64,000 nucleotides of DNA from JAWCQZ01 sp038869515 [NCBI: Halobacteria archaeon]. Its GTDB lineage: Archaea; Halobacteriota; Syntropharchaeia; JACQPP01. Below, one piece after another: positions 5,086 through 24,620 of this stretch (positions are counted from its first letter, which is position 1; each line of letters opens with the position of its first letter). The notes beneath the pieces are model-generated. The model searched no databases. It was not told the DNA's origin and saw only the letters and a program-made list of their open reading frames with translations. The position numbers were made by a program, and so were the translations under genes. The stretch is from the NCBI GenBank assembly GCA_038869515.1, contig JAWCQZ010000001.1, forward strand, positions 62,001 to 126,000, given 5' to 3'.

Positions 5086-6309
5086 TCAAAAGTCCGTCAT
5101 CACCCGGAACTGGTCGATCTCCTCCGCCCGCATCGCCTGGAGGAACGACCACGCCGCGCCCGCGACGTTCCGTGCCTGGGTGATGGCGCGGCCGACGACC
5201 AGGATGTCCGCGCCGGCGTCGAGCGCCAGCGGCACCTTGTCGAGGCGGATGCCTCCCGCCACGGCGACCCTCATCTGGGGGCCGCCGGCGGCCTTGAGCG
5301 CCTTGATGTCCCCCCACTCCAGCCCCCGGACCGCCTTCCCCCCCTTCCCCTCGGTGTCGATGCCCCTGTGGAGCTCCACGATGCGGGGCTTCACCGGCAG
5401 CGACTTCACCAAGGCGAGAGGGTCGGGGACGTTGATCATGTCGATCATCGAGTGGACGCCGACCTTCGCGCACTCGTCGATGAACTTCTCGATGGTGGGC
5501 CGCGACGCCAGGCCCGACACCGTCACCGCGTCCGCGGTGGCGTCGGCGGCGATGCGGGCCTCCAGGTGGCCCGTGTCGAGGGTCTTCAGGTCGCAGATGA
5601 CGAAGGACTCGGGCCGCATCTGGTGGATCTTCTGGCACACCTCGACCCCGTAGCGCTTCACCAGGGGGGTCCCGGCCTCGATGATCAGGGCGTCGCTGCG
5701 GGGCAGGGAGGCGACCACCGACTCCACCCGGCGCCACTCGGGGATGTCGATGGCGACCTCGAGGAGGGGGGGCTTGCTCAGGTTGTTCGGCCGGAAGTTC
5801 ATGCTCGGATGGAGGGCCTTGTCCTTCTCCTCAAGAACCTTGCTCACGCTCGGAAATCCTGTCAGGGCCCGCTGGAGGGCGAGTTTGGTCGCCCCGTAGT
5901 TGTAGCGGTAGAGGCGGTTGTAGTCCTTCGCCCGGGGGTGGATAAAGACAGAGGCGACCACCACCCACTCCTCCGCCTTGTCGCGGGGGAAGAGCCCCTC
6001 CCCCACGGCGTCGGCGATCGCCTTCGCCACGGCGGACTGGGCCGGCCCGAAAATCTTGTCGGCGTCCTCCAAGTTCCGGATGGTCAGCTTCGGCACGATG
6101 AGGGTCGAGGGCTTCACCGGGAGGTTGGGGCGGACCACCGCCGAGATGGCGGTGTGGCCCTGGACCGGGTGGGCCATGGCGATGGCGAAGGCCTGCCCCA
6201 CCGGGCCGCTCTTCGGGCCCACGATGAGGTCGACGTGGGCCAGGTCGGGCTCGTCCCCGATGAGCGCCTCGCCCACGAGGATGGGGGGCTCCCTCCCTTC
6301 CGGCTTCAT
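5086..6309 (-). CDS. fae-hps: Bifunctional formaldehyde-activating enzyme / 3-hexulose-6-phosphate synthase
   Basis: The 407-residue fusion joins Fae (about residues 8-165), which condenses formaldehyde with tetrahydromethanopterin, to Hps (about 175-400), which interconverts formaldehyde plus ribulose-5-phosphate and hexulose-6-phosphate. Fae signatures are VGEALIGDE, the catalytic His in AHVDLIVG (His25), and HPVQGHTAI. The Hps half is an OMPDC-type barrel with VAIDIPEW, VICDLKTLD and VAVAGGI segments. Archaea lacking a pentose-phosphate pathway use the fusion to make ribulose-5-phosphate. An A-tract at 6333-6338 sits about 26 bp upstream as a possible promoter. The mptD gene at 60152 supports a methanopterin-type cofactor. 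Confidence 0.95.
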   Translation of the reverse strand: MKPEGREPPILVGEALIGDEPDLAHVDLIVGPKSGPVGQAFAIAMAHPVQGHTAISAVVRPNLPVKPSTLIVPKLTIRNLEDADKIFGPAQSAVAKAIADAVGEGLFPRDKAEEWVVVASVFIHPRAKDYNRLYRYNYGATKLALQRALTGFPSVSKVLEEKDKALHPSMNFRPNNLSKPPLLEVAIDIPEWRRVESVVASLPRSDALIIEAGTPLVKRYGVEVCQKIHQMRPESFVICDLKTLDTGHLEARIAADATADAVTVSGLASRPTIEKFIDECAKVGVHSMIDMINVPDPLALVKSLPVKPRIVELHRGIDTEGKGGKAVRGLEWGDIKALKAAGGPQMRVAVAGGIRLDKVPLALDAGADILVVGRAITQARNVAGAAWSFLQAMRAEEIDQFRVMTDF

Positions 6310-18942: not shown

Positions 18943-20172
18943 TCAGCCGAAGAGCCACCAGTAGGAACCGTAGCGGATCCAGATGTCGAGCCCCCCCGCC
19001 GCCACCGGGAGGACGGCGGCGAGCAGGGAGAGCCCCGCGACGAGGACCGCGGGCGACGGCCGCAGGATGAGGCGGACGAGCCCCCGCGCCGCGGCGAAGC
19101 CGAGCGCCCCGCCCCCCGCAGCCAGCAGGAGACCGGGGAAGCTCCAGCCGTACAGGGCGTTGTGGAGGAGGCCGAGGGAGAGCCCCGCCAGGGCCCAGAG
19201 AGGGAGGCCGCGCCGGAAGGGGAGGGGCGCCTCCGGCTCCCCGGCTCCGGGAGCCGGGGAGCGCGCCCGCAGCCGCTCGCCGAAATCGGCCAGGATGGCG
19301 AGCGGGAGCCCGAACGCGAGGGTGAAGCGGTAGGAGGGGTTCTGCCCGACCGCCAGGATGGCCGCCGTGAAGGCGAGGAGCCCCCCGAGGAGGAGGGCGA
19401 GGGAGAGCGTGGCGCTCCACCGCCGGGGGCGGAGGGCCTGGGCCATGGCGAGGGGGGTGGCGAGGGCGAGGGTGATGGCGAGCGGGGCCCAGAGCGGGTT
19501 GTCGGCGGTCCAGTTCCACTCCACCGTCGTCCGCCGCAGCGCGAGCGCCGGGAGGTCCGCCTGGAGCGCGGGGTTGCTCAGCGAGGCGATGTAGTCGGCG
19601 CGGGTCACCGCGAAGGAGCCGACGTAGCGGATGAGGCCCGCGGCGAGCCCGGCGCCGAAGGCGAGGATGCCGAAGTCGAGGACCCGCCGGTCGAGGTCGG
19701 TCTTGTCGCGGAGGAGGAGGGCGCCCGAGAGGATGCCGAGGGCCGCGAGGAGCCCGCCGGAGATGGTGAGGTTGTGGGGGAGCGAGTACGCGGATTCCCC
19801 GCCCTTCAGCCGCTCGTGCCAGACGGAGTCCACCATGCCGCTGAAGAGCGCCATGAGGGTGCCGAGGGCGAGCAGGAGGAGGCCGACCGGGAAGCGGACG
19901 GAGAGCGGGGGCAGCGGGAAGGCGGGCCCGTTGAAGGCGCGCCGGACCGGCTCCAGGAGCGCCCCCGAGGCGGCCGAGAGGGCGACGAGGACCCCGGCGT
20001 AGAGGACGAGGTGGGGCGGCGACCAGAACTCCTCGAATGGGAAGGTGCGGTGCCACGCCCCGTCCCACCAGAGCCCCCCCAGGGCGACGGTGAAGCCGAG
20101 GGCCGAGAGGATGAGGACCGCGCGGGCGGGCAGGTGGGGGACGGCTCGGAGGCGGGAGAGGAGCGGCTCCAT
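18943..20172 (-). CDS. Polytopic membrane protein with two D-x3-W-H...P-H motifs (paralog 1)
   Basis: The 409-residue protein has about ten to twelve membrane segments and two repeated motifs at the ends of helices: Asp37-x3-His41-x12-His54 (DGAWHRTFPFEEFWSPPH) and Asp115-x3-His119-x13-His133 (DSVWHERLKGGESAYSLPH). The first has the same spacing as the Asp156/His160/His173 copper ligands of particulate methane monooxygenase subunit PmoC, with the same aromatic-His and Pro-x-His setting. Other CuMMO subunits are absent, so function is open. It starts 1 bp after the acyl-CoA dehydrogenase stop (operon), and a paralog lies at 23334. Confidence 0.8.
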   Translation of the reverse strand: MEPLLSRLRAVPHLPARAVLILSALGFTVALGGLWWDGAWHRTFPFEEFWSPPHLVLYAGVLVALSAASGALLEPVRRAFNGPAFPLPPLSVRFPVGLLLLALGTLMALFSGMVDSVWHERLKGGESAYSLPHNLTISGGLLAALGILSGALLLRDKTDLDRRVLDFGILAFGAGLAAGLIRYVGSFAVTRADYIASLSNPALQADLPALALRRTTVEWNWTADNPLWAPLAITLALATPLAMAQALRPRRWSATLSLALLLGGLLAFTAAILAVGQNPSYRFTLAFGLPLAILADFGERLRARSPAPGAGEPEAPLPFRRGLPLWALAGLSLGLLHNALYGWSFPGLLLAAGGGALGFAAARGLVRLILRPSPAVLVAGLSLLAAVLPVAAGGLDIWIRYGSYWWLFG

Positions 20173-20173
20173 C

Positions 20174-21937
20174 TCAGAGCCCCGCCGCCTTCCGGAGCGC
20201 CTCAGGGGCGATGGTCCGGTACTCCACCAGCGGGTCGAAGAGGTCGAGGAGGGTCCGGTCCTTCGACCCGACGCCCCGCAGGGGGTGGGTCCGCAGGTGG
20301 AGTTCGGCGAAGAGGTGGGCCACCGCCGCCTTCCGGGCGTCCCCCTCCGCCAGATCCTCGGCCGCCTCCCGGAGGAGGAGGGCTCCCTGCAGGCTGTCGG
20401 CCATGAGGTCCACGAGGGCGCGCGCCCGCAACTGCGCCATCTCCGGGTCCATCTTCGGCAGGCGGGCCAGGGCCTCGGCGAGCTCCTTGAGCCCCGATTC
20501 CACCGCCCCCCGGGTCGGGGCGAGGAGGGGGTCGGAACCTCCCCGGGCGAGGGCCGCCCCTCGGGCCAGGAGCGCCTCGTGGGAGCCGTGCTTCGCCACG
20601 GTCCGGAGGACATCGAGGATGAGGATGTTCTCGGTCCCCTCCCAGATGGTGTGGCACTGGGCGTCCCGCAACTGGCGCGCGGCGGGCCACTCCTCGATGT
20701 ATCCATTTCCGCCGAGCACTTCGAGGCCCAGGCTCGCCATCTCCAGCCCCCTCCGGGCGCACCGGATTTTCGCCAGGGGGGCGAGGAGCCGCAGGAGGGG
20801 CTGCCCCTCGACCGGGGCGCTCAGGCCCAGCGCCCCCGAGAGGCGCGCCGCCTCGAAGAGGAGGGCCGCGCCCGCCTCGCTTTCGACCACCATCCGCGCC
20901 AGCATCTCCCGGACGAGGGGCCAGTCGCGGAGCGCGCGGCCGAAGGCGCGCCGGTGGGTCGCGTAGACCATCGCCTCGAGGAAGACCCGCCGGAGGATGC
21001 CCGCCCCCATCGTGGCGACGCCGACGCGGGAGTAGTTCACCATCTCCATCATCCGCTGGAGGCCGCGGCCGTCGGGCTCCTTCGAGCCCTCCGCCAGGAG
21101 GTGGGCCTCCGCCTCCACGAAGTCCACCTCAGCCGTCGGGACCGCCCGGGTTCCCAGTTTCTCCTTGATGCGCCGGATGCGGACACCGTTGGGGCTCCCG
21201 TCCGACCGGAGCTTCGGGACGAGGAAGAGGCCGATTCCCTTCACTCCGGCAGGGCTCCCCTCGGGGCGCGCCAGGGTGGCGATGGCGCCAGCGTCCACGT
21301 TGGAGCAGAACCACTTGAAGCCGTTGAGGAGCCACCGGTCTCCCTCCCTCCGGGCCACCGTCTTCACGCTGGCGCCGAGGTCGGAGCCGCCGTCGATCTC
21401 GGTGAGGAACATTGCGCCGTCCAGCGCCCCGTCGAACCGCGGGGCGGTGAGGTCGGGCAGGAACCGCCTCTTCACCTCGGGGGAACCGAACCGCTCCACC
21501 AGCATCGCGACGCCGCCGGTCATCCCCACCGCGCAGAGCATCCCGGTCTCCGCCTGGCTCAGGAGGTAGGTGAGCGCCGCGGAGACCGCGGCGACGCTCT
21601 CGGGCCTCCGCTCCCTCGCCTCGGGCCACCAGGGGAGGGTGACGGCGCCCAGCTCCCAGAGGTCGCGCTTCGTCTCGAGGGCGCCGGGGTGGTGCTCGAC
21701 CCGGTTCACCTCGTTCCCCCGGGCGTCCCACTTCACCAAGCGGGGCGGGCTCTTGTCGGTCACCTCGGCCCGCGCCGCGACCGGCCCTCCGATGACCTCG
21801 CCGGCGCGGAGCAGCTTCGCCTCGGCCCACGCCCGGTCCTCCCGGGGGACGAGCCGCCCCACGAGCCGCCGGAGGTTGGGGTCGGCCTCGTACCAGTTGA
21901 GCCCGGCCGCCTCCCGGAACTCCCGGTAGTCCACCAT
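20174..21937 (-). CDS. Acyl-CoA dehydrogenase, AidB-like long form
   Basis: The 587-residue flavoprotein belongs to the acyl-CoA dehydrogenase superfamily and is longer than the ~380-residue standard, as in AidB and related forms. It has an N-terminal extension, MTGGVAMLVERF, the flavin-contacting FLTEIDGGSDLGASVKT segment, RWLLNGFKWFCSN, and the C-terminal GGNGYIEEWPAARQLRDAQ with TIWEGTENI. A ~100-residue helical extension follows. Acyl-CoA activity is not assured for this subgroup. It lies between an aldo/keto reductase and a metal-motif membrane protein in a tight same-strand array. Confidence 0.9.
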   Translation of the reverse strand: MVDYREFREAAGLNWYEADPNLRRLVGRLVPREDRAWAEAKLLRAGEVIGGPVAARAEVTDKSPPRLVKWDARGNEVNRVEHHPGALETKRDLWELGAVTLPWWPEARERRPESVAAVSAALTYLLSQAETGMLCAVGMTGGVAMLVERFGSPEVKRRFLPDLTAPRFDGALDGAMFLTEIDGGSDLGASVKTVARREGDRWLLNGFKWFCSNVDAGAIATLARPEGSPAGVKGIGLFLVPKLRSDGSPNGVRIRRIKEKLGTRAVPTAEVDFVEAEAHLLAEGSKEPDGRGLQRMMEMVNYSRVGVATMGAGILRRVFLEAMVYATHRRAFGRALRDWPLVREMLARMVVESEAGAALLFEAARLSGALGLSAPVEGQPLLRLLAPLAKIRCARRGLEMASLGLEVLGGNGYIEEWPAARQLRDAQCHTIWEGTENILILDVLRTVAKHGSHEALLARGAALARGGSDPLLAPTRGAVESGLKELAEALARLPKMDPEMAQLRARALVDLMADSLQGALLLREAAEDLAEGDARKAAVAHLFAELHLRTHPLRGVGSKDRTLLDLFDPLVEYRTIAPEALRKAAGL

Positions 21938-21967
21938 CCGGGGAGGTCGCCGTCCCGGAGGAAAACG

Positions 21968-23026
21968 TCAGCGCCGGGAGAGGTCTGCCAGTCTCCCCAG
22001 GACGGAGGCGGGGGCCCGGGGGATTCCGCGGAGGCCGAGGTTGTGGGCGACGTGCTCCACCCGCCCCATGCCGACGAGCGCCGCGGCCACGCCGGGGGCG
22101 GAGCGGGCGAACTGGAGGGCGCGCTGGGCGTCGCTCCCGAGGCCGGGGAGGAGGGCGGCCAGTTCGGGCGGGAGCCCCCCGGCGAGCCTCCCCTGGAGGA
22201 TGGAGGCCGAGGCGAAGACTGCGACGCCGAGTTTCCGGGCGGCCTCGAGCAGCGTCACCCTCTCGCCGGAGACCTCCTGGCTCGGAGCGAAGGCGGCCTC
22301 CGCCATGGCGAGGTTGAACGGCATCTGGAGGGCGCGGAAGCGGTGGCCCGGGCCGCCGACCCGCTTCGCCAACTCCACGAGTTCCGCCAGCGAGAGGTGG
22401 CCCGGCTCCTCGGGGCCCGCCCGGAGGCCGTTCCAGGTCGCCACGCCATAGGCGCCGACCTTTCCCCGGGAGGCCATCTCCTCCAGGAGCCGGAAGGCCG
22501 CCTCCATGCGCCGCAGGAAGGTCTTCCGGTCCGCCTCGTCGAGCTGCTGCTCCGGGTTGTGGAGGTAGTAGAGGTCCACCGTCTCCAGCCGCAGGTTGCG
22601 GAGGCTGGTCTCCACCTGGTTGCGGAGGTAGGCGGGGGCGAGGCAGTGGATGCCGCCGACGACCTCCTCCTCCTTGGCGAGTCCGGGCCGGAGGACCGTC
22701 TGGTCGAGGTGGGCCCAGTGGTCCCGCGGCGGAGAGGAGTCGTAGGGGACGTAGCCCCCCTTGGTGGAGACGAAGACCTCGTCCCGCTTCAACTCACTCG
22801 CGTGGAGCAGTTCCTCGAGCGCGTCGCCGATGTTCCGCTCCGAGCGCATGCAGCGGTAGTTGATGGCTGTGTCGAGGAGGTTGATCCCGCCGCGGAGGGC
22901 CGCGGCGATGGCTCTCCGGTAGGAGTCGTCGGCCCCGTCGCTGGCGTGGCCGAGGTAGGTGCCGAGGCCGATGGAGGAGATGCGGAGGCCGAGAGCGTCC
23001 GCGGGGCCGCTTTCGGTGGAACCCAT
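21968..23026 (-). CDS. Aldo/keto reductase
   Basis: A 352-residue NAD(P)H-dependent (beta/alpha)8 oxidoreductase. LGLRISSIGLGTYLG opens the barrel, the Asp-Tyr-Lys-His active-site equivalents lie in LLDTAINYR, FVSTKGGY and LYYLHNPE, and ALVGMGRVEHV near the end binds the cofactor. The start at 23026 was preferred because homologous folds begin about 12 residues before the first strand; a longer form from 23140 would add 38 residues of low-complexity, poorly structured sequence. The stop is 30 bp before the acyl-CoA dehydrogenase start, so they are probably one operon. Confidence 0.88.
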   Translation of the reverse strand: MGSTESGPADALGLRISSIGLGTYLGHASDGADDSYRRAIAAALRGGINLLDTAINYRCMRSERNIGDALEELLHASELKRDEVFVSTKGGYVPYDSSPPRDHWAHLDQTVLRPGLAKEEEVVGGIHCLAPAYLRNQVETSLRNLRLETVDLYYLHNPEQQLDEADRKTFLRRMEAAFRLLEEMASRGKVGAYGVATWNGLRAGPEEPGHLSLAELVELAKRVGGPGHRFRALQMPFNLAMAEAAFAPSQEVSGERVTLLEAARKLGVAVFASASILQGRLAGGLPPELAALLPGLGSDAQRALQFARSAPGVAAALVGMGRVEHVAHNLGLRGIPRAPASVLGRLADLSRR

Positions 23027-23211
23027 CGCCTCCTGCGGGAACGCAATGGTGAAGAAATCGGGCGCCGCCTTCTGACGCTCCGCGAAGCGCTCTGTTCCCC
23101 CGGGGGTGGCGCGGCCTTTGTGGGTGTGGAAGCCGGCCATCCACAGACCGGGAGGGGGCTCTACAAGTAGTTTTTCGGAAGCGAGAGCGAGCAGGGTAAA
23201 CGGCCCCGAAC

Positions 23212-23258
23212 TCGCCCCCCGTTTTCGCTTCGAAACGCGAGGGTTCGCGGGCGGTTTC
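23212..23258. repeat. Dispersed palindromic repeat D, copy 1
   Basis: CCCCGAAC ... CGTTTTCGCTTCGAAACGCGAG forms a stem-loop and resembles the nested palindrome at 33684-33742. It lies in the gap between the aldo/keto reductase and the second metal-motif membrane protein. Confidence 0.55.
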
Positions 23259-23333
23259 GGAGCGCGCGGCCCGGCAAGGGGCCCTGAACTACCCGAGCAG
23301 GTGCGGCATTGGACTCATGAAGCGCTCGGTGCT

Positions 23334-24620
23334 TCAGAACCACAGCCGCAGGTAGATGTCAAACACCCCGAACGCCGCCGGCAGCACCAGCGTCATCAGC
23401 AGCAGCGTCCACCCCACCCTCCGGGGGGTCGGTTCGGTGGCGACCTTGGCCACCTTCTCCCCGATCATGGCGCCCGCGACCCCGGCGAAGGGGGCGACGG
23501 CCATTCCGAGCGGGTGGAAGCCGAACCGGAGGCCGTGCAGCGTGGCCATCGCGAGGGCCGCGGCGGCGGGACCGGGCCGGTCCGCGAGCCACTTGAAAGG
23601 CCCGGGCAGAGTGGTGTTGAGCGGTTTCGGGAGCAGGTCCTGCGGCAGGGCGAGCATGACGAGGCCGACGAGCCCTCCGAGGGCGGCCGTGGTCGCGAAG
23701 CGGGAGTCGGTGACGGGGCTGTTGGGGTCGACGAGGCCCGGCTGAGACTTCAGCAGCAGGAAGAACCCGGTGGTCGCCCCCGCGAGGATGGCGACGTTGG
23801 CCAGGGCGGCCCGGGTCGCGATGAGCCGCTTCCCGGGGGCGAGAGCGCGCGCCATCGCGAGGGGGGCGACCAGGGCAAGCGGGACCAGGAGGGGGATCAG
23901 CAACGAGTTGCCCTGGTGGATTCCGCTGGCGAGGAACGCCCGGGCGATCTTGACCGACTGGGGATCGAGCCTGTAGAACTCGGCGTTGGCGAGCCGCTGC
24001 TGGAGGTCCTCCGCGGGCGAGATGAGCGGCACGATGGGGAAGGCGAAGATGATGATGAGCCCGGCGCCGAACATGACGATGGGCCATGCCGGGCGCTGCC
24101 TCTCCCCGAGGGTGGCGCGGAGAGCCTGGGCGCCGCTCATGAGACCGAGCGCCATGAGGACGCCGCCGAGGACGATGAGCATGTGGGGGTAGGACCAGGC
24201 GGTCTCGTTCGCCCCGAGTCTCGCGTGCCACGCCGAGTCGAGCAGCCCCGCCAGGACCGCCTGGAAGGAGCCGAAACCGACCCAGAAGAGGCTCGCCGGG
24301 ACCGGGACGTTGAGGAACGGGACCCGGACGCCGGGGCCGAAGACGGCGTGGGCCCGGAACCAGGGGTGAAAGATGGCGAAGAGCAGCAGCGTGCCGCCGA
24401 CGCCGAACCCTCCGTAGATCATCAGGTGGGGCGGGGACCAGAACTCCTCGAAGGGGTTCACCGTGTGCCAGACGCCGTCGAACAGGAGCCCCAGCAGCGC
24501 GACCAGCATCGAGAGGCCGAGCGACCAGAAGAAGAGGAGGAGCCGCCGGTCGGGGGTCGCCTCCGTCTCCCCGGCCCGCCCCGCGGCGACGGCGGTTGCC
24601 GTAGCTTCTCCGTTCCCCAT
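23334..24620 (-). CDS. Polytopic membrane protein with two D-x3-W-H...P-H motifs (paralog 2)
   Basis: The 428-residue protein is clearly related to the one at 18943. It has Asp48-x3-His52-x12-His65 (DGVWHTVNPFEEFWSPPH) and Asp128-x3-His132-x13-His146 (DSAWHARLGANETAWSYPH), similar helix spacing, and the same ending with an Asp-Ile-x-x-Arg motif (FDIYLRLWF). ATG 24620 follows an A/T-rich AAAACTTTT at about -26. The first motif matches PmoC copper-site spacing. It is likely the first gene of the strand-wise block that continues with the reductase, dehydrogenase and paralog 1, after a 307-bp gap containing a palindrome. Confidence 0.8.
   Translation of the reverse strand: MGNGEATATAVAAGRAGETEATPDRRLLLFFWSLGLSMLVALLGLLFDGVWHTVNPFEEFWSPPHLMIYGGFGVGGTLLLFAIFHPWFRAHAVFGPGVRVPFLNVPVPASLFWVGFGSFQAVLAGLLDSAWHARLGANETAWSYPHMLIVLGGVLMALGLMSGAQALRATLGERQRPAWPIVMFGAGLIIIFAFPIVPLISPAEDLQQRLANAEFYRLDPQSVKIARAFLASGIHQGNSLLIPLLVPLALVAPLAMARALAPGKRLIATRAALANVAILAGATTGFFLLLKSQPGLVDPNSPVTDSRFATTAALGGLVGLVMLALPQDLLPKPLNTTLPGPFKWLADRPGPAAAALAMATLHGLRFGFHPLGMAVAPFAGVAGAMIGEKVAKVATEPTPRRVGWTLLLMTLVLPAAFGVFDIYLRLWF

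What the first reader, a model, noticed from the sequence alone, without database searches (positions are those of the whole stretch)
18943..24620. Paralogous membrane proteins with PmoC-spaced Asp/His motifs flanking redox enzymes
Two polytopic proteins (18943-20172 and 23334-24620) each carry two D-x3-W-H motifs followed by a Pro-His: D37/H41/H54 and D115/H119/H133 in one, D48/H52/H65 and D128/H132/H146 in the other. The first motif in each (spacing 0, 4, 17) is the same as the Asp156/His160/His173 copper site of PmoC, and the surrounding residues (D..WH ... P.H) also resemble it. Between them are an aldo/keto reductase and an AidB-like acyl-CoA dehydrogenase on the same strand. PmoA/PmoB equivalents are absent. 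A duplicated, PmoC-like metal membrane protein linked to redox enzymes could be an undescribed oxidation or metal-handling system.
Basis: partly seen in the sequence, partly recalled or inferred. Interest (0 to 1): 0.75.

Follow-up and report, generated by a model that had tools for sequence, protein, structure and literature searches.

The report
Widespread relatives of methane-enzyme copper subunit
Two neighbouring archaeal membrane proteins belong to a large, unnamed family, found across bacteria and archaea, that is distantly related to the copper-binding subunit of the methane- and ammonia-oxidising enzymes and keeps both of its metal sites, in many hosts without detectable genes for that enzyme.

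Summary
Neither protein matches Pfam or NCBIfam, but homology to PmoC/AmoC is well supported. A 45-sequence profile without CuMMO members gives PmoC/AmoC as its top seven PDB chains (two below E 0.001) and hits the AmoC gene in 13 of 21 ammonia-oxidising archaeal genomes checked. Profile-profile comparison gives 97% (reversed 0.6%; 85% with ligands masked), and the two halves match CuC and CuD in order. Relatives occur in eight phyla; all six ligands are present in 80 of 80 loci and in 24 of 24 divergent members with altered loops. In 43 of 80 loci the next gene encodes a secreted-looking, His-rich protein; in 15 a related domain is fused on. AmoC and PmoB models are over cut-off in 0 of 40 sampled host genomes; PmoA could not be tested. 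Most likely a copper-handling membrane protein; oxygen chemistry is not excluded. The aldo/keto reductase link is not general. Structure searches did not recover PmoC.

The parts
23334..24620 (-). P0003, PmoC-like polytopic membrane protein, 428 aa
   Evidence: first row of the family alignment A3; AlphaFold pLDDT 80.7, pTM 0.82; no Pfam or NCBIfam match at E up to 1
24426..24479 (-). site 1 of P0003: D48/H52/H65, spacing 0,4,17 as CuC
   Evidence: invariant in A3; half 1 of A3 matches half 1 of CuMMO C subunits at 96%
24183..24239 (-). site 2 of P0003: D128/H132/H146, spacing 0,4,18 as CuD (Asp instead of Asn)
   Evidence: invariant in A3; half 2 of A3 matches half 2 of CuMMO C subunits at 83%
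18943..20172 (-). P0004, second PmoC-like paralogue, 409 aa
   Evidence: 38% identical to P0003 over 240 aa; no Pfam or NCBIfam match at E up to 1
20011..20064 (-). site 1 of P0004: D37/H41/H54
19774..19830 (-). site 2 of P0004: D115/H119/H133
20174..21937 (-). AidB-like acyl-CoA dehydrogenase; its stop lies next to the start of P0004 (co-transcription is an inference)
   Evidence: PF18158, PF02770, PF00441; sequence; 31% identical to a dehydrogenase beside the family gene in L009
21968..23140 (-). aldo/keto reductase, 30 bases upstream of the dehydrogenase gene
   Evidence: PF00248 E 1.3e-28

Best explanation
P0003 and P0004 belong to an uncharacterised, patchily widespread family homologous to the C subunit of copper membrane monooxygenases (PmoC/AmoC). 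A duplicated two-helix unit makes a four-helix core with two Asp-His-His metal sites, equivalent to CuC and CuD, probably on the extracytoplasmic face. I think the sites bind copper and that the protein takes up or passes on copper at the membrane surface, for example towards cytochrome oxidase or other copper enzymes. In many bacterial relatives it works with a His-rich extracytoplasmic partner whose mature end is probably a histidine, encoded next door or fused. Shown: motifs, profile-level homology to PmoC/AmoC, ligand conservation, gene adjacency and fusion. Inferred: that the metal is copper, the membrane side, and the relay role. The window pair has no such partner and may work as a pair of paralogues.
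For: PDB profile search: 11 of 13 listed chains, including the top seven, are AmoC/PmoC, two of them below E 0.001 (best 1.3e-4), aligned across both sites. In Thermoproteota genomes the same profile has hits at the place where PF04896 finds AmoC over cut-off in 13 of 21 AmoC-bearing genomes, E 4.5e-8 to 9.2e-4 (my comparison of the two lists). HHalign core against nine CuMMO C subunits 97.0%, reversed 0.6%; ligands masked 84.7%; half 1 to half 1 96%, half 2 to half 2 83%, half 1 to half 2 0.4%, half 2 to half 1 24.5%. Ligands present in 80 of 80 loci, 23 of 23 and 6 of 6 AOA paralogues, 24 of 24 divergent Chloroflexota ORFs with altered loops. Partner downstream in 43 of 80 loci, fused domain in 15 of 80; fused domain matches partner at 78.6%, reversed 0.6%. 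Copper context: Streptomyces plasmid locus with multicopper oxidase, CcsB/ResB and a cupredoxin-domain protein; archaeal L009 followed by COX2 and COX1; weak likeness of the fused domain and the partner to the H. pylori copper protein CrdA (Foldseek E 0.018; profile E 0.041). AmoC and PmoB models over cut-off in 0 of 40 sampled host genomes.
Against: Foldseek and VIA-align did not list PmoC for either model. Single-sequence PDB searches gave nothing relevant, and the fused-type profile reaches AmoC only at E 0.14-0.29. With ligands masked, the fused-type and AOA sets fall to 12.7% and 25.8%. In 8 of 21 AmoC-bearing genomes the profile did not report the AmoC place (at most six candidates a genome were scored). 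In VIA-align the CrdA likeness (Z 8.4) is tied with unrelated Ig-type domains (Z 9.0). No test here says which metal is bound. Among neighbour proteins, the shown families hold no copper enrichment in the Acidobacteria-type set (25 of 151 families shown) and few in the fused-type set (25 of 86 shown). Co-occurrence with COX1 in Chloroflexota is weak (42 of 44 against 165 of 207, p 0.015, not corrected for kinship). The window's flanking genes that I scanned are not copper genes.
Confidence: 0.5

Rival explanations
1. A small copper oxidase or monooxygenase: the PmoC-like sites activate oxygen on an unknown substrate, with the extracytoplasmic partner (or paralogue) delivering copper or electrons, without PmoA.
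For: Both membrane metal sites of PmoC are kept; PMC12576850 passages describe CuC, and CuD, as proposed active sites; the partner carries invariant His-x-His-Pro motifs; the window operon holds an aldo/keto reductase and a flavin dehydrogenase family member; the window also encodes a Fae-HPS type fusion.
Against: PmoB over cut-off in 0 of 40 sampled host genomes and no PmoB match in window ORFs; the PmoA search was uninformative. Site 2 is Asp, not Asn as in the nine CuMMO C subunits compared. The partner shows no sequence relation to PmoB (0.5%).
Confidence: 0.2
2. A membrane protein whose Asp-His-His sites bind zinc or another metal and serve a structural or sensing role.
For: Asp/His/His is also a common zinc ligand set (recalled); PMC12576850 passages say that zinc can occupy CuC and that this abolishes activity.
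Against: Homology to a copper protein; copper-linked neighbours in some lineages.
Confidence: 0.2
3. The resemblance to PmoC is convergent: a short D-x3-H...H motif in unrelated helical proteins.
For: Structure searches did not list PmoC; AmoC model matches in relatives are weak, best E 0.0048.
Against: Profile hits to AmoC with AmoC absent from the profile; signal stays for A3 with ligands masked (84.7%); halves match in order rather than crosswise.
Confidence: 0.06

Closest known systems
PmoC/AmoC, C subunit of copper membrane monooxygenases (PF04896)
   Same: Core with Asp-His-His at CuC spacing and a second triad at CuD spacing; profile-level homology
   Different: Asp instead of Asn at site 2; window proteins do not match the family model; separate branch in the tree (SH-aLRT 98); long extra C-terminal helical part; no PmoB found nearby
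PmoB (PF04744), compared with the bacterial partner protein
   Same: Predicted N-terminal His after signal cleavage, extracytoplasmic domains, hydrophobic segments in the middle, His-x-His motifs (by eye)
   Different: No sequence relation detected (0.5%); analogy only
CrdA copper protein of Helicobacter pylori; FixH/YtkA-like domains
   Same: First Foldseek row of the fused model and best PDB row of the partner profile; weak FixH and YtkA matches
   Different: All matches weak; VIA-align ties CrdA with unrelated Ig-type domains
Extra AmoC copies of ammonia-oxidising archaea (PMC10030591, passages)
   Same: Additional AmoC-like genes in these archaea
   Different: The 360-aa and 200-aa paralogues found here lie outside the AmoC branch (14 of 23 and 6 of 6 distinct ones placed)

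Membership tests
CuMMO C subunit (PmoC/AmoC) | match to PF04896 or TIGR03078 | tested here: not met
   no match for either window protein at E up to 1; in relatives only weak matches, best E 0.0048
CuMMO C subunit (PmoC/AmoC) | CuC triad Asp-x3-His-x12-His | tested here: met
   aligned to the AmoC motif
CuMMO C subunit (PmoC/AmoC) | second triad at CuD position with Asn-His-His | tested here: not met
   position and spacing as CuD, but Asp instead of Asn
CuMMO C subunit (PmoC/AmoC) | branches within the CuMMO C clade | tested here: not met
   nine CuMMO C subunits form one branch at SH-aLRT 98, window proteins outside (quick tree of 88 rows, midpoint root)
CuMMO C subunit (PmoC/AmoC) | encoded with PmoB | tested here: not met
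   profile of four PmoB: no match in window ORFs at E up to 10; PF04744 over cut-off in 0 of 40 sampled host genomes, and in the AOA control
CuMMO C subunit (PmoC/AmoC) | encoded with PmoA | tested here: inconclusive
   PF02461 rang in no genome, not even the AOA control; window not searched
PmoC/AmoC superfamily (homology) | significant profile similarity beyond the ligands, in order | tested here: met
PmoC/AmoC superfamily (homology) | same three-dimensional fold | tested here: inconclusive
   whole 428- and 486-aa models searched; core not folded alone
copper-binding protein | binds copper | not testable with these tools
   needs metal analysis

The most novel reading that the evidence does not exclude
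The family is the broader stock from which the C subunit of methane and ammonia monooxygenases arose, and its two-part form (PmoC-like membrane protein plus secreted N-terminal-His partner) is itself an oxygen-activating copper enzyme that lacks PmoA, spread over bacteria and archaea.
Probability: 0.15. Interest if true: 0.95.

Novelty: new variant of a known kind. Interest (0 to 1): 0.78.

Why it matters
Where methane is oxidised in pMMO is still debated, and CuC and CuD are proposed active sites (PMC12576850, passages). A family that keeps both sites, in sampled hosts without detectable AmoC or PmoB (0 of 40 over cut-off), gives a natural way to ask what those sites do alone. It also suggests that CuC and CuD descend from one duplicated site: the two halves still match in this family (96%) but not in the CuMMO set (0.3%). 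I found no description of such relatives in nine searches of open-licence papers (two searches asked most directly); subscription papers and preprints were not searched.

Tried and rejected
Structure route: Foldseek and VIA-align on the P0003 model (pLDDT 80.7) gave no match at E below 0.001 and no PmoC in the rows shown. The fused L031 model (pLDDT 85.4) gave CrdA first (E 0.018); pMMO chain A (PmoB by recall) appears only at probability 0.13-0.30, and VIA-align ties CrdA with unrelated Ig-type domains. Single-sequence PDB searches found no PmoC. Partner as a PmoB homologue: no support (0.5%). Viral relatives: two pattern matches, none confirmed. PmoA absence: PF02461 rang nowhere, even in an AOA genome, so it proves nothing. 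PF04896 at E up to 0.1 matched 6 of 40 genomes below cut-off, some of these places being family members, and also rings below cut-off in E. coli and Haloferax, so weak hits are near noise. Two of 14 fused-type members match acyltransferase PF01757 (best E 2.9e-7), unexplained.

Neighbours: I scanned 113 of 188 called genes near fused/Chloroflexi-type members and 95 of 185 near Acidobacteria-type members, chosen by hand from the lists; only 25 of 86 and 25 of 151 families are shown. Shown in the first set: ResB 3, HMA 2, YHS 2. COX1 co-occurrence in 251 Chloroflexota genomes is weak (the 42 and 2 were read by hand from the lists). The family is patchy: 4 of 149 Acidobacteriota genomes, 44 of 251 Chloroflexota, 51 of 300 Thermoproteota, the last including true AmoC hits.

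Biases: the collection scan used patterns around site 1, so site 1 conservation in those 80 loci is partly by construction; site 2 was not in the patterns. The A3 profile favours ligand-bearing hits, and HHalign cores were cut by the motifs. The 20 divergent places were picked by me from the weaker hits; with strict spacing the count there is 0 of 24, with free loop length 24 of 24. From the AOA set I dropped L122 (truncated, lacks site 1) and L089. The 40 host genomes and the 23 AOA-check genomes were my choice from larger lists. Gene starts, and so the partner distances, were set mechanically; L013, L026, L059 and L075 partners are cut or split.

Full report
Observation. The window encodes two paralogous polytopic proteins, P0003 (23334-24620, minus) and P0004 (18943-20172, minus), 38% identical over 240 residues. 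Each carries two Asp-His-His triads at the stated residues. The first triad has spacing 0,4,17 and the second 0,4,18. Both spacings together occur by chance in 7e-5 and 2e-5 of shuffles of these proteins. The genes between them are an aldo/keto reductase and an AidB-like acyl-CoA dehydrogenase. Neither paralogue matches Pfam or NCBIfam at E up to 1.

What the triads are. Passages of PMC12576850 give the PmoC ligands as Asp156, His160, His173 for CuC and Asn227, His231, His245 for CuD, that is 0,4,17 and 0,4,18. The window proteins therefore match both sites in spacing and order, with Asp for Asn at the second.

Homology. A profile from 45 family members that holds no CuMMO sequence (A3) was searched against all PDB chains. 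Of 13 listed, 11 are AmoC or PmoC, including the top seven; two are below E 0.001 (best 1.3e-4), and the alignments span both sites. The two others are gustatory receptors at E 1.7. In 300 Thermoproteota genomes the same profile matched 51. I checked 23 of these with the AmoC model PF04896: 21 have AmoC over cut-off. In 13 of the 21 the A3 list holds a hit at the AmoC place, at E 4.5e-8 to 9.2e-4; in the other eight it does not (comparison; A3 scored at most six candidates a genome). HHalign of the A3 cores gives 97.0% against nine CuMMO C subunits (reversed control 0.6%); the fused-type, AOA 360-aa and AOA 200-aa sets give 89.1%, 90.1% and 50.5%. With the six ligands masked, A3 keeps 84.7%, while the fused-type and AOA 360-aa sets fall to 12.7% and 25.8%. 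Half 1 matches CuMMO half 1 (96%) and half 2 matches half 2 (83%); half 1 against CuMMO half 2 gives 0.4%, half 2 against CuMMO half 1 24.5%. Within the family the two halves match each other (96% in A3, 97% fused-type, 92% AOA 360-aa, 42% AOA 200-aa), which indicates an internal duplication; in the CuMMO set this is not visible (0.3%).

Distribution and conservation. A scan of genome contigs found 343 relatives, of which the best 80 were kept. They lie in Chloroflexota, Thermoproteota, Acidobacteriota, Gemmatimonadota, Verrucomicrobiota, Actinomycetota, Deinococcota and Myxococcota (titles). Both triads at exact spacing were found in 80 of 80. In A3, 13 columns are invariant and six of them are the ligands. 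Twenty places of weaker Chloroflexota hits gave 24 ORFs; none has the strict spacing, yet all 24 have all six residues, with site 1 spanning 16-19 and site 2 spanning 18-23. Loop length changes while the ligands stay. Ammonia-oxidising archaea carry two further paralogue classes of about 360 and 200 aa besides AmoC; 23 of 23 and 6 of 6 distinct sequences hold both triads. The family is patchy: 44 of 251 Chloroflexota and 4 of 149 Acidobacteriota genomes. Host genomes hold one to seven matches. Five Chloroflexota loci carry adjacent pairs of family genes (L139-L142, L148), a little like the window pair.

Fold. The P0003 model (pLDDT 80.7, pTM 0.82) places D48/H52 near the end of helix 25-54, H65 at the start of helix 63-84, D128/H132 near the end of helix 109-135 and H146 at the start of helix 144-171. 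By alternation of helices all six should face one side (inference; no coordinates were measured). Ligand-side loops hold fewer Lys/Arg per residue (0.078) than the other side (0.131) over the 45 sequences, which points to the outside. Structure searches did not list PmoC; I count the fold as untested.

Partner. In 43 of 80 loci a gene just downstream, on the same strand, encodes a protein of about 480 aa (shorter where the contig or frame is broken). Twelve of 43 overlap the family gene and the median gap is 21 bases, with mechanically chosen starts. By eye it has a signal-like start, then a His directly after Ala or Gly (for example ARA-HVGSPNVFFEG) and two hydrophobic stretches; the 30-sequence alignment shows the His in at least 90% of rows and invariant DH, H, HxHP and GM..H..HxHP motifs. 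In 15 of 80 loci, fused type, the family protein itself ends in a domain beginning AHDPGQG. That fused domain matches the partner at 78.6% (reversed 0.6%), so partner and membrane protein are linked by fusion as well as by adjacency. Of the remaining 22, four Chloroflexota proteins have another C-terminal Ig-like domain by eye, and L014 is cut by its contig end. The architecture recalls PmoB, but no sequence relation was found (0.5%). The best PDB row of the partner profile (E 0.041), and the first Foldseek row of the fused model (E 0.018), is the copper protein CrdA of H. pylori; both are weak, and VIA-align ties CrdA with unrelated Ig-type domains.

Context. The Streptomyces plasmid member lies among multicopper oxidase, CcsB, ResB and cupredoxin-domain genes. 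The Desulfurococcales member L009 is followed by COX2 and COX1, with an AidB-like dehydrogenase 123 bases away on the other side, 31% identical to the window's. Remote dehydrogenase homologues lie 2.2-4.0 kb from the family gene in L024, L030, L044 and L063; no ORF in the loci resembles the window's aldo/keto reductase at E 1e-5. AmoC and PmoB models are over cut-off in 0 of 40 sampled host genomes. The window is archaeal by content (MCM, archaeal CCA-adding enzyme; A/V-type ATPase genes judged by eye) and 70.9% G+C; the organism is not known. No partner-like protein was found in the window.

Tree. On 88 cores, the nine CuMMO C subunits form one branch (98) apart from the rest; the window pair groups with three Thermoproteota proteins (94, unstarred, long branches). 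The root is not inferred, so ancestry is open.

Mechanism. Shown: the family, its profile-level homology to PmoC/AmoC, ligand conservation and the partner link. Inferred: copper as the metal and relay of copper as the role. I prefer copper handling because some members sit with copper enzymes, sampled hosts show no AmoC or PmoB, and the two sites are symmetrical Asp-His-His. An enzyme is not excluded.

Literature. Nine searches gave no description of PmoC relatives outside CuMMOs in their listings. I read passages only of PMC9038741, PMC12576850, PMC10030591, PMC12533140 and PMC6215863.

Noticed in passing
5086-6309, minus: Fusion of formaldehyde-activating enzyme (Fae, PF08714) and an OMP decarboxylase/HUMPS-family domain (PF00215).
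   Followed up: no
L109, L117, L124, L126 (AOA), gene just upstream of the 360-aa paralogue: A 186-195 aa protein with one N-terminal hydrophobic segment precedes the PmoC-like gene in four AOA loci; no clear Pfam match. It may be the archaeal counterpart of the bacterial partner.
   Followed up: partly
L111, L123, L128 (AOA): The 200-aa AOA paralogue lies some kilobases from a cytochrome oxidase-like gene cluster (judged by eye from ORF starts).
   Followed up: no
L139, L140, L141, L142, L148: Tandem pairs of family genes in Chloroflexota.
   Followed up: no
L015:2986-3711, minus: A separate protein with the partner's HxHP-type domain near a fused-type family gene (E 3.5e-19).
   Followed up: no
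1110-1213, plus: A 104-base tRNA match in Rfam that ARAGORN does not report; possibly an intron-bearing archaeal tRNA.
   Followed up: no
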